Part shown: positions 9,700 through 15,548 of the stretch, in pieces | How the letters are laid out: the number at the start of each line of letters is the position of its first letter | Numbering within the stretch: position 1 is the first letter of the stretch | Assembly (NCBI GenBank): GCA_020832285.1 | Contig: JAFIFB010000008.1 | Location: 1-64,000, forward strand | Reading direction: 5' to 3' | Source of the DNA: Balneolaceae bacterium | GTDB taxonomy: Bacteria > Bacteroidota > Rhodothermia > Balneolales > Balneolaceae | Length of the DNA: 64,000 bases | Position numbers and translations under genes: made by a program | The notes under the pieces: generated by a model | Told to the model about the DNA's origin: nothing | Database searches by the model: none | Seen by the model: the letters and a program-made list of their open reading frames with translations, nothing else

Positions 9700-10419
9700 T
9701 TAACGTGAACCGGTAATCTCAGATATAATTTGGGCAATCACCACACCATTTTGCTTAACAAAGTTTTCATCCAGGGCAAGTTTTTGGTTGACTTCCAGTT
9801 CAATTCCCAAATAATGAACTTCATCAAACTTTTTCCTTAGTGCAGTGGTAAACCCATCCGATGTGCCTTTGTAAGGCTGATTCATACGCACACGCATATC
9901 CGGCATTTTACTTTTCATTCGCTGTTTCCATTCCCGGCAAAAATCCTTCTCACTGGGTCGTGATGGATCATAAAGCAATCCAATTTCAAAATCCCGTTTT
10001 ATCCCGTTCAACTCCGGGACAAAGGAGTGAATCCCAACATGAACAGCTTGGCTGCCACTTTCGGTAATTTTCTCAATCGCCCCCTCCACACGCTGTCTGT
10101 ATGGATGGTAATAATTATTCAGCAGCTTCTCTTTCTCCCGTTCGGTCAGTTTTTGGCTAAACTCTGAATATAGCCTGGGGTGCCCTTGTGACCGGTTGAC
10201 CTCAATGAGCAGCCGGGTCCAGGGATAAACAAACAGAGGGCCACCCATGTTCTCTGACAAAATTTCCGCCAGCTGCAAGGCACCGGGATCCCACCCGCGA
10301 TGTGATTCCAGCACATCTTTTGCATCATCAACTTCAAAAAGATGGCCAAACTCTTCAGGGACATAATTCGAGGCATGCTCACAAGTAAAGATGTATTTAC
10401 GGCTGAAACGATCTCCCAT
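9700..10419 (-). CDS. N-formylglutamate amidohydrolase-like protein (FGase fold)
   Basis: A 239-aa zinc hydrolase of the N-formylglutamate deformylase/amidohydrolase family. It has the family marks EHASNYVPEEF, SHRGWDPGA, LIEVNRSQGHPRLY and VHVGIHSFVPELNG. It is the last gene of a four-gene unit and its start overlaps the preceding GCS2 gene by 23 nt, implying translational coupling. hutH lies nearby, but no hutU or hutI is present, so a role in histidine breakdown is not supported. I infer that it hydrolyses an amide made by the upstream ligases. See the findings for the operon. Confidence 0.85.
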   Translation of the reverse strand: MGDRFSRKYIFTCEHASNYVPEEFGHLFEVDDAKDVLESHRGWDPGALQLAEILSENMGGPLFVYPWTRLLIEVNRSQGHPRLYSEFSQKLTEREKEKLLNNYYHPYRQRVEGAIEKITESGSQAVHVGIHSFVPELNGIKRDFEIGLLYDPSRPSEKDFCREWKQRMKSKMPDMRVRMNQPYKGTSDGFTTALRKKFDEVHYLGIELEVNQKLALDENFVKQNGVVIAQIISEITGSR

Positions 10420-11656
10420 CCCTCAGACTGTTACAAAGTTCCGTGTAAATATTAAAAAGGTCGGGTTTTGTAAACCTGTTCGGGAGTGCATTTAAAATTC
10501 TTCTCGCAAGCGGTCCCTTCTCAAATATCAGATTAAGGTGAATCTCGGAGGTTTCTGAAAATAGATATACATCTTTCAATTCATCAAAAAGATAGTGGCA
10601 TAATTCTCCTGCAGAAATTTTCTTTTCCCGAAGTCCGAAAAGTGATAAAAAATCGGCATTTTGGATTACCGCCTGGTCTCCAAGTTTTATCGTTTTCATC
10701 AAAATGTGATAAAGTTCAGTTTCGCTCCATGCTTGTTGTTCTGCTCTTGTAGCCCATTTTTCATCCACAAGTGCTTTGGTAAGGTTAACCACCCATTCCA
10801 ATACTGCAATATCTGCACCCGGATATTCCTGATTATCGATCACCCTGATTTCTATGGTTTGCCGGTCCCACCGCGACATGGCACCCCGTGAGTTGAGCCA
10901 CTCTTCCTGCAGTATGCCATCGGTGTCGAACGGGGCAATTTCCCGGTACATAGGCTGAAAAATCTCCTGCTCATAACCAGATCTTGAAAACACCGGTTCA
11001 GGCACAATTTTTCCCGTAACCGAGGGAATCCTCATAGAATTGGTGCGGTACATCTCCATTCTGTAATCGAGAAATGGTTTCCGTTCAGCATCGGCGACGG
11101 GTGAGCTTGCCGCAACAGCAGGTATCAGTGGCAGCGTCAGGCGTGTTGCGGCATGAAGTTTCCCGAATTCATCATCACCATCGAATGGAAGATTCAGGTG
11201 TGTGCTTTGCAAGTTTGCCCAGCCATGACCCCGGCAATCGAATATGCGATGATAGGCCTCATAGATCAGGTTTTGTTCATGCGGCCAAAGTTTTACTTCT
11301 GTGAAGGGATTCATCCAGGGATGAATCGCGCCGGGCATCAAACGTGCTCCAAAACGTTCAAGAATTTTCTCTATAGCCCGGACCTGGCCCATAAATGCAC
11401 TGCGAAGAGGTTTGAGCGAAACCGCCGGACCGTTGGTTTTTATCTCAATCACATGCAGTACCAGTTCGTTACTCCATGCCATGCCTCCGAAAGAGTGTTC
11501 ATTTACAATTTTACCAGCAGCCTTTTCCAGCAGTCGGTCAGATACAGGCTTTACATCCAGAGTCTCACTGTCTGCAATCATATATTCCAGCTCAACACCG
11601 TATCCCTCAAATAGTGAAAGCGGGCGTTTTGTGTTGATTTCTACAGGACTGCTCAT
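10397..11656 (-). CDS. GCS2-family carboxylate-amine ligase (glutamate-cysteine ligase-like)
   Basis: A 419-aa protein of the GCS2/YbdK family (glutamine-synthetase-like fold), which joins the gamma-carboxyl of glutamate or a similar acid to an amine using ATP. Visible marks: GVELEYMIAD near the N terminus with an ATP/metal Glu, IHPWMNPFTEVKLWPHE, GHGWANLQSTHLNLPF, RTNSMRIPSVTGKIVPEP, and WDRQTIEIRVID near the C terminus. Its start codon overlaps the stop of the upstream ATP-grasp gene by 4 nt (ATGA). Here it most likely acts on a peptide or amino-acid conjugate and not in glutathione synthesis. Confidence 0.88.
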   Translation of the reverse strand: MSSPVEINTKRPLSLFEGYGVELEYMIADSETLDVKPVSDRLLEKAAGKIVNEHSFGGMAWSNELVLHVIEIKTNGPAVSLKPLRSAFMGQVRAIEKILERFGARLMPGAIHPWMNPFTEVKLWPHEQNLIYEAYHRIFDCRGHGWANLQSTHLNLPFDGDDEFGKLHAATRLTLPLIPAVAASSPVADAERKPFLDYRMEMYRTNSMRIPSVTGKIVPEPVFSRSGYEQEIFQPMYREIAPFDTDGILQEEWLNSRGAMSRWDRQTIEIRVIDNQEYPGADIAVLEWVVNLTKALVDEKWATRAEQQAWSETELYHILMKTIKLGDQAVIQNADFLSLFGLREKKISAGELCHYLFDELKDVYLFSETSEIHLNLIFEKGPLARRILNALPNRFTKPDLFNIYTELCNSLRDGRSFQP

Positions 11657-13116
11657 GAAGTACCTTTCTTTTTTTCTTCGATACGCCGCAGAAGTTCAAG
11701 CATTATTTTCCTGTACAATTCATCTTTCAGAACAGCATCTTCCAGCCCCGCATCAACACTCGGATTGTCATTCACCTCAATCACATACGACTGGTTATCC
11801 ACCTCCTTGAGGTCAACGCCGTAAAGGCCATCCCCGATCAAAGCAGCAGCCTTGATTGCGGTATCCAGCACATGTGGAGGGATCTCATCAGCCGGTATGG
11901 TTTCACTGTCGCCTTCATAAATTTTTCCGTCATCCGGACGTTCATAAATCTGCCAATGTTGCCTTGCCATAAAATACTTGCACGCGAATAGAGGGCATCT
12001 GTTCAGGATACCAACTCTCCAGTCAAATTCAGTCGGAATAAACCGCTGAACAATCAAAAGTTCTGACTTTTCAAAAAGATTTTCCGCCATATGCACAAAT
12101 TCCTCAACATTATCGGCCTTCACAACTCCCTGGGAGAAAGAGCTGTCGGGCTGCTTCAGTATACAGGGGAATCCCAGCTTTTCCTGAACCATATTCGTTT
12201 GAACCGATTGGATAATCAGAGTATCTGGTGCAGGAATGTTGTGTTTGTTCAGAAGCTCGGCCAGGTATACTTTGTTGGTGCACTTCAGGATTGATTCGGG
12301 ATCGTCAATTACAATCAGCCCCTCGGCAGCTGCACGGCGGGCCATACGGTAAGTATGATGGTTTACATGTGTCGTTTCCCTTATAAAAAGGGCGTCAAAC
12401 TCATTCAGGCGCGAGGCGTCATCTTTGGTAATAAGCTCAGTGTAGAAATGTAGAGCTTCGGCTGCCTGAATAAATTTGCGGATCGCCTTTTCATTGGATG
12501 GCGGCATTTTTTCATCCGGGTTCACCAAAATAGCAAGATCGTATCGCGATTCCTTTTTGGAAACTCCCCGGTATCTTTTTTTAAAAAACTCCTGAGCCAT
12601 TTCCGATACGAAGGGCCGGTGCTCTCCCGGGATTTCACTTGTGGCAATTGGTTGAATATTCTTTAAGAACCATTCCTTATCTTTGCGGAAAAACTCTGCA
12701 CGAAGTAAGGGTGCCTGGAAATGGTCAAACAACCGGCCTGATAGCTTATCGTATCGTTTAGCAAGATTTTTTCCAAAGTAAATACTGAGCGTAAACCTCT
12801 TTCCCTGAATGGGTTTAAGGCTTTTTTGAATAAGTACGTCCAGTTCATCCGAAACGATTCGGATAATAGTTTTGGACTTGAGATCCTGGATAGCCAGTAC
12901 ATTCGGAAAGGGTTTATGCCCCCGTGCAGTTGCCAGCAGCGAAACATAATAGCCAAGGGTCTGATAACGATAGCTCCGGCTCAGATTAAATACTTTTGCA
13001 TTACGAAGTGCAATGTATTGAGGATCGGTGATATAATTTTTTGCCGAAATTACCTGCACACCGGGAATATCCAGCAGCCAGTTTTCAGGATTGTTAACTA
13101 CCACAAGTTGATGCAT
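11653..13116 (-). CDS. RLAN-domain RimK-like ATP-grasp ligase
   Basis: A 487-aa protein. The first ~150 residues form the RLAN (RimK-like ATP-grasp N-terminal) region, with SAKNYITDPQYIALRNAKVF, SRSYRYQTLGYYVSLLATAR and GHKPFPN. The C-terminal ~220 residues are an ATP-grasp domain with FPCILKQPDSSFSQGV, LIVQRFIPTEFDWRVGIL and the metal-binding GVDLKE plus VIEVNDNPSVDAG. Relatives add glutamate or other amino acids to a carboxylate through an acylphosphate. It follows the C39 peptidase gene by 8 nt and overlaps the GCS2 gene by 4 nt. Confidence 0.9.
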   Translation of the reverse strand: MHQLVVVNNPENWLLDIPGVQVISAKNYITDPQYIALRNAKVFNLSRSYRYQTLGYYVSLLATARGHKPFPNVLAIQDLKSKTIIRIVSDELDVLIQKSLKPIQGKRFTLSIYFGKNLAKRYDKLSGRLFDHFQAPLLRAEFFRKDKEWFLKNIQPIATSEIPGEHRPFVSEMAQEFFKKRYRGVSKKESRYDLAILVNPDEKMPPSNEKAIRKFIQAAEALHFYTELITKDDASRLNEFDALFIRETTHVNHHTYRMARRAAAEGLIVIDDPESILKCTNKVYLAELLNKHNIPAPDTLIIQSVQTNMVQEKLGFPCILKQPDSSFSQGVVKADNVEEFVHMAENLFEKSELLIVQRFIPTEFDWRVGILNRCPLFACKYFMARQHWQIYERPDDGKIYEGDSETIPADEIPPHVLDTAIKAAALIGDGLYGVDLKEVDNQSYVIEVNDNPSVDAGLEDAVLKDELYRKIMLELLRRIEEKKKGTS

Positions 13117-13124
13117 TGACCGAT

Positions 13125-13817
13125 CTATTTTGGGGTGATGATGATTAGGTTCGCATCATATGTTACGATACCAAGCAAGATAGCATTAATTACACGATCT
13201 ATTTTAAGCTTGTAAAACAGCCCGTCAGTAACCGGACTTTTTCCCAGAGGATCGGCTATATAGACTTCCCGGTTTTGCACATCGTAGCCTTGCAGCACCA
13301 CAAAATGACCCGTAGGCTCTCCGCGAATATCATCATAAATAAGCTCCGGGCCGAACTCCCTCGCGCTCTGATAGAGGTAGGTTGCGCTTAAACCGGCAAT
13401 AATCGGTTGGTCTTTTCTAAGGTACCTTCGTATAATGGCCGGGCGCAAATCTTCGAACCGAATACGGCCACCCAGCTTCAAAAACCTGACATATGCATCT
13501 ATAGCGGTTTTCAGTTTTTCATCCTGTTTGAATTCGGCCTGTTTTTGAAGCTTTTCTATAATAATTTTTCGGGTCTGGCCTTTCCAGGTTGGATCAAATA
13601 CGTGCAGGTTATAAGTACAAATTGTTGCTTGATATCCCCTTTTAAGTGCATGAACAGCTAAAAGAGCTCCCAGAGTGCCTCCATCTTCCAATTGAGGCAC
13701 TTGTTCAATTACTGTACTAAGTGATACCGGATCGTTGTAATATTCATAAATAGTTTGCAAACAGGTCGGGCCACAGGTTGTTTCATCAGGTTGTTTTTTA
13801 ATAGGGATGTTCAGCAT
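13125..13817 (-). CDS. C39-like cysteine peptidase, first gene of the ligase operon
   Basis: A 230-aa papain-fold protein. Residues fitting a C39/BtrH-like active site are Q9 (oxyanion hole) and C15 in KKQPDETTCGPTCL, H171 in PTGHFVVLQGYD and D189 in YIADPLG. It has no signal peptide or transporter fusion, so it should act in the cytosol, unlike the bacteriocin-processing C39 domains of ABC exporters. It heads a unit with the RLAN-RimK, GCS2 and FGase-like genes. Peptidase and transpeptidase activities are both plausible. Confidence 0.82.
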   Translation of the reverse strand: MLNIPIKKQPDETTCGPTCLQTIYEYYNDPVSLSTVIEQVPQLEDGGTLGALLAVHALKRGYQATICTYNLHVFDPTWKGQTRKIIIEKLQKQAEFKQDEKLKTAIDAYVRFLKLGGRIRFEDLRPAIIRRYLRKDQPIIAGLSATYLYQSAREFGPELIYDDIRGEPTGHFVVLQGYDVQNREVYIADPLGKSPVTDGLFYKLKIDRVINAILLGIVTYDANLIIITPK

Positions 13818-13944
13818 CGGCAGCAGGCAATTTCTAAATCAGATTTACGGTTATTAACGTAAATGAAAGTAAAACAGATATTTTATACTCATAATAATTG
13901 CCATATTCCCTGTAAAATTCAGCATTTTTTGTCCTCCGGGCTGC

Positions 13945-13976
13945 TTAACCTGCATTATTCACCAAGAAATTTGGTT
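13945..13976 (-). repeat. Dispersed TTGGTGA repeat, copy 2 (fullest copy)
   Basis: Read on the minus strand it runs ACCAAATTTCTTGGTGAATA, then ATGCAGGTTAA. It lies in the divergent promoter region between the C39 peptidase gene and hutH, about 60-90 bp before the hutH start. It matches the copies at 122, 34303, 38671 and 60868. Confidence 0.65.
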
Positions 13977-14033
13977 GAATAACTGTGCCCCGGCCCGTTT
14001 CACTGTTCCCGGCAATCTAAAAAAGATAAAACG

Positions 14034-15548
14034 ATGGAATTCCTTCAGACAGATCTAACCATTTCAACTCTTTATGAAGATCTGGCGAAATGCCTTCAGC
14101 AACTTGAACAAGATCCCTCAGCCGTAATTTCATCCCGCGCAATCGTGGATGAAGCATTGAAGGATGGTAACGCTTACTACGGAATCAATACCGGTTTCGG
14201 AGTCATGGCTACGCAGCGGATTTCTGATGAACAGCTCACTCAACTTCAGCGAAATCTGATACTCTCGCACGCGGCTGGGGTTGGTGATTTAATTCCCAAA
14301 GAGATTTGCAGACTGATGCTTCAGCTCAAAATTCATTCCCTGTCCATCGGATATTCTGGAATTTCGATGGAGACTCTGGAACGGCTCATCTTTTTTTTAA
14401 AACATGATCTGATTCCCGCCATTCCTCAAAAAGGTAGCGTTGGAGCTTCGGGCGATCTGGCCCCGCTGGCTCATATGTCGCTGCCACTCCTTGGACTTGG
14501 AATTTTCTGGAATGATGAGGGAACTGGCGTAACCGATGCACCGGAAGTGCTTGAAAAGTATAACATCGAACCGATTGAACTAAAACCGAAAGATGGACTT
14601 TCGTTAATCAACGGTACCCAGCTGATGAGTGCTTACGGTGCGTTTGTTCTTGAAAAAACGCTGCATCTTCTCAAAATGGCAGATGTGGCTGCCGCGATGA
14701 GTCTTGAAGCACTACAGGGAAGTATAATACCATTTGATAAACGTATTCTTGCTATTCGACCGCATAAAGGTCAGGATGAGGTTGCGGCCAATGTACGCTT
14801 TCTACTCGAAAAGAGTAAGATTCTGGAGTCTCACCGCCATTGCGGCAAAGTACAGGATCCCTATTGCCTGCGATGCGTTCCGCAGGTTCACGGTGCCAGC
14901 CGCGATGCAATTCGGCATGCTATCTCTGTGGTAGAAACCGAAATCAACTCCGTAACCGATAATCCGCTGGTTTTCCCCGGCGGCGATATTCTGAGCGGAG
15001 GTAATTTTCACGGTCAGCCGCTGGCACTTGCAATGGACTATGCGAAAATCGCTATTGCTGAACTCGCAGGCATCTCGGAACGAAGAATTTACCTGCTTCT
15101 GGATGGGCACGACGGACTTCCCAAACTGCTGATGCAGGAGACGGGAATCAACTCCGGGTTTATGATTCCGCAGTACACCGCAGCAGCACTCGTTTCAGAG
15201 AATAAAGTCCTTTGCCATCCTTCTTCTGTCGATTCCATCCCAACAAGCCTCGGGCAGGAAGATCACGTGAGCATGGGCAGCATCAGTGCGCTCAATCTGC
15301 TGAAGGTGTACGAAAACGTGGAGACAGTACTTGCCATCGAACTCTTCACAGCGGCGCAGGCACTCGACTTCAGGAAACCACTGAAGCCGGGTAATGGTGT
15401 GGAGGCAGCCCATAAAATTATCCGTGAATCGATACCCCACGCCACCGAAGATCACTATTTTAAAGATGACATCAATAAAGCGATTGATCTCATACGACTC
15501 CGTGATTTCGTTCTCCAGCTTGAAACATCAGATACGACCTTATATTGA
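14034..15548 (+). CDS. hutH: Histidine ammonia-lyase
   Basis: A 504-aa enzyme that converts L-histidine to urocanate and ammonia. The Ala-Ser-Gly triad that self-cyclises to the MIO cofactor is at residues 138-140 (GSVGASGDLAPLAHM). YYGINTGFGVMAT near residue 50 carries the active-site Tyr, and NGTQLMSAYGAF and the VTDNPLVF region are also standard. The rest of the hut pathway is absent from this window, so hutH is separated from hutU/hutI or serves another role. It is divergent from the ligase operon. Confidence 0.95.
   Translation: MEFLQTDLTISTLYEDLAKCLQQLEQDPSAVISSRAIVDEALKDGNAYYGINTGFGVMATQRISDEQLTQLQRNLILSHAAGVGDLIPKEICRLMLQLKIHSLSIGYSGISMETLERLIFFLKHDLIPAIPQKGSVGASGDLAPLAHMSLPLLGLGIFWNDEGTGVTDAPEVLEKYNIEPIELKPKDGLSLINGTQLMSAYGAFVLEKTLHLLKMADVAAAMSLEALQGSIIPFDKRILAIRPHKGQDEVAANVRFLLEKSKILESHRHCGKVQDPYCLRCVPQVHGASRDAIRHAISVVETEINSVTDNPLVFPGGDILSGGNFHGQPLALAMDYAKIAIAELAGISERRIYLLLDGHDGLPKLLMQETGINSGFMIPQYTAAALVSENKVLCHPSSVDSIPTSLGQEDHVSMGSISALNLLKVYENVETVLAIELFTAAQALDFRKPLKPGNGVEAAHKIIRESIPHATEDHYFKDDINKAIDLIRLRDFVLQLETSDTTLY

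What the first reader, a model, noticed from the sequence alone, without database searches (positions are those of the whole stretch)
9700..13817. Four-gene peptide ligation and cleavage operon: C39 peptidase, RLAN-RimK, GCS2 ligase, FGase-like hydrolase
The four genes are packed with an 8-nt gap, a 4-nt overlap and a 23-nt overlap, so they are very likely one translated unit. Two unrelated ATP-dependent ligases (ATP-grasp and glutamine-synthetase-like GCS2) are combined with a cytosolic papain-fold peptidase (Q9, C15, H171, D189) and a zinc amidohydrolase. Comparative work on amidoligases has pointed to gene neighbourhoods with RLAN ATP-grasp and GCS2 proteins, but I know of no defined product. 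Inference: a system that builds an amide-linked tag or small peptide, then trims or releases it. No separate precursor peptide gene is visible.
Basis: partly seen in the sequence, partly recalled or inferred. Interest (0 to 1): 0.75.

Follow-up and report, generated by a model that had tools for sequence, protein, structure and literature searches.

The report
Two-ligase, two-hydrolase peptide-making operon
Four adjacent bacterial genes form a real, widely spread module in which two unrelated ATP-driven ligases and two hydrolases probably build and trim a small capped peptide, and the capping ligase is swapped for an acetyltransferase in sister bacteria, but nobody yet knows the product.

Summary
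Window 9700-13817 (minus strand) encodes C39 peptidase, RLAN-RimK ATP-grasp ligase, GCS2 ligase and FGase hydrolase, with an 8-nt gap, 4-nt (ATGA) overlap and 23-nt overlap. C39-RLAN-GCS2 order recurs in 76 of 99 RLAN loci from many phyla (45 with FGase); active-site residues are invariant. In 198 genomes of the window's phylum the GCS2 and C39 clades occur in exactly the same 15 genomes, all RLAN-positive; the 7 other RLAN genomes are exactly those with one RimI-like GNAT family. In the phylum of Thiobacillus, GNAT lies beside RLAN in 56 of 58 loci and GCS2 in none. So RLAN-RimK nearly always works with an amine-acylating partner, GNAT or GCS2. No fifth gene or precursor is conserved. Best reading: a small-peptide pathway with the logic of NAGGN or glutathione synthesis; GCS2 supplies the gamma-glutamyl-type cap that GNAT supplies elsewhere, RLAN-RimK makes the second amide, C39 and FGase trim or recycle. 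RimK-like protein tailing is the main rival. The product is unknown. RLAN amidoligase neighbourhoods were predicted before (Iyer 2009, not readable here), so this is a new variant of a known kind.

The parts
13125..13817 (-). C39-like papain-fold cysteine peptidase, 230 aa, no signal peptide evident; Q9, C15, H171, D189
   Evidence: Pfam PF13529; triad invariant 79/79; AlphaFold model pLDDT 92.9; C39 peptidase domains Z 18.6, phytochelatin synthase Alr0975 Z 17.8, endoisopeptidase PeiR Z 17.5
11653..13116 (-). RLAN-RimK: RLAN domain (12604-13044) plus RimK/LysX-like ATP-grasp ligase (about 11755-12408), 487 aa
   Evidence: PF14401 and PF08443; K282, K321, E447, N449 invariant in 98 rows; model closest to ArgX/LysX and RimK
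10397..11656 (-). GCS2-family (glutamine-synthetase-fold) carboxylate-amine ligase, 419 aa; start overlaps the RLAN stop as ATGA
   Evidence: PF04107; E22, E24, E64, E71, H112, R257, R262, R265, E269 invariant in 75 rows; own clade, only weak similarity to YbdK and plant glutamate-cysteine ligase
9700..10419 (-). FGase-family metal-dependent amidohydrolase, 239 aa; start overlaps GCS2 by 23 nt
   Evidence: PF05013; E14, H15, H40, H127, H131 invariant in 44 rows; solved relative 2ODF/Atu2144 1e-37 with profile; HutG equivalog model not met
13818..14033 (.). Intergenic region between the operon and the divergent histidine ammonia-lyase gene; the probable promoter lies here (inference)
   Evidence: Divergent arrangement; sequence read; no promoter mapped

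Best explanation
A self-contained cytosolic pathway for a small, capped, non-ribosomal peptide. GCS2 activates a carboxylate (by family knowledge the gamma-carboxyl of glutamate) with ATP and joins it to the amino group of an amino acid X. RLAN-RimK then phosphorylates the free carboxylate of that product and joins it to an amine Y, giving gamma-Glu-X-Y or a short extension: the two-ligase logic of glutathione (GshA, then ATP-grasp GshB) and of NAGGN (N-cap, then peptide bond). In sister systems a RimI-like GNAT places an acyl cap instead of GCS2. The cytosolic C39 cysteine peptidase cuts or transfers the peptide (phytochelatin-synthase-like fold), and FGase, found only with the GCS2 version, hydrolyses the N-acyl-type amide to release or recycle the building blocks. 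Shown here: operon, co-inheritance, near-exclusive GNAT-or-GCS2 partner rule, intact active sites, folds of C39 and ATP-grasp. Inferred: order of steps, substrates, product, that it is a small molecule.
For: Order C39-RLAN-GCS2(-FGase) with gaps mostly between -29 and +20 nt in 76 of 99 loci from Balneolota/Bacteroidota, Planctomycetes, Proteobacteria, Nitrospirota, Verrucomicrobia, Omnitrophota and others. Identical 15-genome patterns of GCS2 and C39, inside the 22 RLAN genomes. The RLAN-associated GNAT family occurs in exactly the 7 RLAN genomes that lack GCS2, and in no other of the 198. Of 58 RLAN loci fetched in the phylum of Thiobacillus, GNAT is detected beside RLAN in 56 (L158 is cut at a contig edge and shows only the C39; L129 shows none) and GCS2 in none. 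GNAT-RLAN fusions nest inside the GCS2-type RLAN clade (97/89 support), suggesting a second, independent swap. All active sites invariant. A different FGase subfamily fills slot 4 in L114. No precursor or other fifth gene. NAGGN precedent: Ngg does N-acetylation and peptide-bond formation, in an operon with a peptidase (PMC8070244); a sister GNAT has a partial hit to the NAGGN synthetase model.
Against: No product, substrate or phenotype is known. The ATP-grasp is closest to LysX/ArgX/RimK, which act on protein C-termini, and the GNAT is closest to RimI, which acts on a protein N-terminus. GCS2 glutamate specificity is family knowledge, not tested; the clade is far from proven glutamate-cysteine ligases. 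C39 and FGase are missing in some loci. The AU test does not reject a single origin of the GCS2 type (p 0.25).
Confidence: 0.45

Rival explanations
1. Protein tagging: RLAN-RimK adds amino acids to the C-terminus (or a side chain) of a host protein, GCS2 or GNAT modifies the added chain or an N-terminus, and C39/FGase reverse it, as RimB reverses RimK.
For: ATP-grasp fold nearest ArgX-LysW, LysX and RimK-RpsF structures; GNAT nearest RimI; RimK/RimB precedent of ligase plus protease (PMC12239564); the RLAN domain could be a protein-recognition domain (inference).
Against: No conserved substrate protein in the neighbourhoods; LysW, the natural carrier of LysX/ArgX, is absent from 20 of 22 RLAN genomes including this one; sporadic distribution across distant phyla suits a self-contained metabolite pathway better than a host-specific target.
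Confidence: 0.3
2. Storage or stress polymer: the ligases make a repeated amide polymer (cyanophycin- or polyglutamate-like) and the two hydrolases degrade it.
For: RimK can make poly-glutamate (cited in PMC12239564); two ligases and two hydrolases in one operon; endoisopeptidase PeiR is among the nearest folds of C39.
Against: No cyanophycin-synthetase-like domain; a GNAT-for-GCS2 swap suits a cap better than a repeat unit.
Confidence: 0.1
3. RiPP maturation: C39 removes a leader and the ATP-grasp cyclises a ribosomal precursor, as in graspetides.
For: C39 is the leader-peptidase family; graspetide ATP-grasp PsnB appears among structural matches.
Against: No conserved small ORF of 30 aa or more within about 6 kb, no recurrent transporter, GCS2 and FGase unexplained; very short precursors could be missed.
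Confidence: 0.06
4. Amino-acid catabolism or salvage, for example histidine degradation next to hutH with FGase as HutG.
For: Histidine ammonia-lyase is the divergent neighbour.
Against: hutH is not a recurrent neighbour elsewhere; HutG equivalog model far below cut-off (17 against 279 bits); FGase travels with GCS2 in many phyla.
Confidence: 0.05

Closest known systems
RLAN-RimK / GNAT-C39 (DUF3335) amidoligase neighbourhoods predicted by Iyer et al. 2009 (Mol Biosyst 5:1636; PMC3268129)
   Same: Same RLAN-RimK core ligase and homologous C39 peptidase. A held paper states that DUF3335 peptidases are often fused to GNAT domains, which might be peptide ligases or acetylases, citing Iyer (PMC10318531). 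From memory the Pfam RLAN entry also mentions GCS2 neighbours.
   Different: The window type has stand-alone C39, GCS2 and FGase and no GNAT. I could not read the 2009 paper, so whether this exact four-gene order was drawn there is open; the phylum-wide GNAT-or-GCS2 partition is computed here.
NAGGN synthesis (Ngg, AsnO, peptidase)
   Same: A cap on an amine plus an ATP-dependent peptide bond, in an operon with a peptidase (PMC8070244); GNAT and ligase activities coupled, as in the GNAT-RLAN fusions.
   Different: No AsnO here; the window proteins do not match the NAGGN synthetase model.
Glutathione synthesis (GshA then GshB) and phytochelatin synthase
   Same: GCS2-family ligase followed by an ATP-grasp ligase; C39 fold close to phytochelatin synthase (Z 17.8).
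   Different: GCS2 clade far from proven GshA; ATP-grasp is RimK/LysX type, not GshB; cysteine and glycine use untested.
RimK/RimB and LysX/ArgX-LysW systems
   Same: Nearest ATP-grasp relatives by sequence and fold.
   Different: No RimB-type protease in the operon; LysW absent from most RLAN genomes.

Membership tests
RLAN-RimK amidoligase systems | RLAN domain N-terminal to a RimK-like ATP-grasp | tested here: met
   PF14401 8e-47 at 25-171, RimK/ATP-grasp after it; conserved in 98 rows
RLAN-RimK systems of the GNAT-C39 form | Genomic partner GNAT fused to or beside a C39 peptidase | tested here: not met
   GNAT absent from the window genome at E 1e-18; stand-alone C39 and GCS2 instead: hence a variant
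NAGGN synthetase (TIGR03103) | Match above the curated cut-off | tested here: not met
   No hit among NCBIfam results for the window proteins; only a partial sub-cut-off hit for a sister GNAT
Glutathione synthesis | GCS2 member is a glutamate-cysteine ligase by curated model | tested here: not met
   All NCBIfam glutamate-cysteine ligase and YbdK models far below cut-off
Glutathione synthesis | Makes gamma-glutamyl bonds | not testable with these tools
   Needs enzyme assay
LysW carrier pathways | LysW carrier protein present | tested here: not met
   TIGR01206 absent from the window genome and 20 of 22 RLAN genomes
HutG N-formylglutamate deformylase | TIGR02017 above cut-off | tested here: not met
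   17.3 bits against 278.75
C39/papain-fold cysteine peptidase | Cys-His-Asp triad plus oxyanion Gln, papain fold | tested here: met
   Invariant 79/79; fold Z 18.6 to C39 peptidase domains
Graspetide RiPP | Adjacent precursor peptide gene | tested here: inconclusive
   No conserved small ORF found, but very short genes can be missed
Anti-phage defence system | Match to PADLOC models | tested here: not met
   No hits for any of the four

The most novel reading that the evidence does not exclude
A widespread, uncharacterised bacterial peptide metabolite (gamma-glutamyl-capped in this version, acyl-capped in the GNAT version) made by one conserved ligase with interchangeable capping enzymes, that is, a glutathione- or NAGGN-like compound class present in many phyla and not yet known chemically.
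Probability: 0.3. Interest if true: 0.85.

Novelty: new variant of a known kind. Interest (0 to 1): 0.6.

Why it matters
A module that recurs intact across distant phyla with strictly conserved active sites almost certainly makes or modifies something useful. The partner rule (RLAN-RimK with GNAT or GCS2, nearly never both or neither) turns a vague 'amidoligase neighbourhood' into a testable claim about which chemical step is exchanged, and points to cultured, harmless carriers in which the product can be sought by LC-MS.

Tried and rejected
HutG/histidine degradation: rejected on model score and lack of recurrent hutH. LysW carrier: rejected. Defence system: no PADLOC hit. Secreted-protein processing: no transporter recurs. 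Fifth conserved gene or precursor: none; DnaJ, cNMP-binding and similar families recur only as scattered or lineage neighbours. Two genomes carry this FGase clade without RLAN (G081, G151); their loci show no ligase partner, probably remnants. Iyer 2009 not held; text searches for RLAN, DUF3335, PF14401 gave nothing functional. AU test did not reject one origin of the GCS2 type, so the repeated-swap claim rests on bootstrap support and on L106 (RLAN of the GCS2 clade without GCS2 or C39 beside it, with the GNAT 2.3 kb upstream).

Full report
Observation. Pfam confirms FGase, GCS2, RLAN plus RimK-like ATP-grasp, and a C39-like peptidase. NCBIfam assigns none to a curated function: the FGase is not HutG, the GCS2 is far below every glutamate-cysteine ligase and YbdK cut-off, and the ATP-grasp is nearest the RimK/LysX/MptN group, below cut-off.

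Is it a unit? RLAN occurs in 22 of 198 genomes of the window's phylum. I fetched their neighbourhoods and 80 named loci from genome contigs. Among 99 non-duplicate loci, 45 read C39-RLAN-GCS2-FGase and 31 C39-RLAN-GCS2, same strand, gaps mostly a few nucleotides. The 80 were picked for RLAN similarity, so the percentage is biased toward this type; the phylum survey is not, and there 15 of 22 have C39, RLAN and GCS2 together. The GCS2 and C39 clades occur in exactly the same 15 genomes. The FGase clade is in 10: 8 in the operon, 2 without ligases. L114 carries a different FGase subfamily in the same slot, and L057 an FGase fused to an HD domain. No other gene or small ORF recurs across lineages.

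Are the enzymes intact? In 44-98 aligned homologues per family the C39 triad and oxyanion glutamine, GCS2 acidic and arginine residues, FGase His/Glu residues and ATP-grasp lysines, Glu and Asn are invariant. The assignment of GCS2, ATP-grasp and FGase residues to catalysis is from family knowledge.

Sister systems. In 299 genomes of the phylum of Thiobacillus, 56 have RLAN. I inspected the 58 RLAN loci other than the centre's. A RimI-like GNAT, often fused to a C39 of the DUF3335 family and often divergent, was detected beside RLAN in 56; L158 is cut at a contig edge and shows only the C39, and L129 shows no detected partner. GCS2 of this clade occurs only in the centre genome. In the window's phylum this GNAT family (E 1e-18) occurs in exactly the 7 RLAN genomes without GCS2 and in none of the other 191; six of these are GNAT-RLAN-RimK fusions, one is GNAT-C39. 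Across the named loci only two GCS2 loci have any GNAT nearby, weak and distant. Exceptions to the rule in the named set are L096, L105 and L118, which have RLAN with neither partner beside it; their genomes have only much weaker GNAT matches.

Tree. GNAT-type and GCS2-type RLAN proteins separate with strong support; a GNAT-fused group sits inside the GCS2 clade (97/89), and L106 lies there too with the GNAT 2.3 kb away. An AU test does not reject a single GCS2 clade (p 0.25). Nominal chance figures for the phyletic patterns ignore relatedness.

Structures. C39 is confidently modelled (pLDDT 92.9); nearest folds are C39 transporter peptidases (Z 18.6), phytochelatin synthase Alr0975 (Z 17.8) and endoisopeptidase PeiR (Z 17.5); such near-ties do not decide function. 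RLAN-RimK (pLDDT 86.9) is nearest ArgX/LysX and RimK over the ATP-grasp part; the RLAN domain itself was not searched alone.

Mechanism. GNAT and GCS2 are unrelated but both acylate an amine, one from acyl-CoA, one from a carboxylate plus ATP. Their mutual replacement beside one conserved ligase suggests they fill the same slot: the cap. That gives a pathway with the logic of NAGGN (PMC8070244) or glutathione. The nearest-relative evidence (RimI-like GNAT, RimK-like ligase) keeps protein modification alive as a rival. LysW is excluded as the general carrier.

Novelty. RLAN/GNAT/C39 neighbourhoods were predicted in 2009 (cited in PMC10318531; the RLAN link itself is from memory); the paper was not readable here. 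No experimental work on RLAN systems was found in the held library. I file it as a new variant of a known predicted kind, with an unknown product.

Noticed in passing
L043:5071-7689: RLAN domain and ATP-grasp are encoded by two separate overlapping ORFs, followed by a GNAT-C39 (DUF3335) gene: split form of the ligase.
   Followed up: partly
L057:8705-9964: FGase fused to an HD-domain (HD_4-like) hydrolase in an Ignavibacteriales MAG; might link the pathway to nucleotide signalling.
   Followed up: partly
L096, L105, L118: RLAN-RimK of the GCS2-type standing alone in Nitrosomonadales-type genomes, with no C39, GCS2 or close GNAT beside it: exceptions to the partner rule.
   Followed up: partly
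L125:7976-8689 and L126:8089-8802: Orphan FGase of this clade in two genomes of the window's family without any RLAN.
   Followed up: yes
window 14034-15548: Histidine ammonia-lyase is divergent to the operon; probably incidental.
   Followed up: yes
L023, L049, L107: Core genes appear broken into two frames (RLAN/GCS2, C39, GCS2), probably assembly errors.
   Followed up: no
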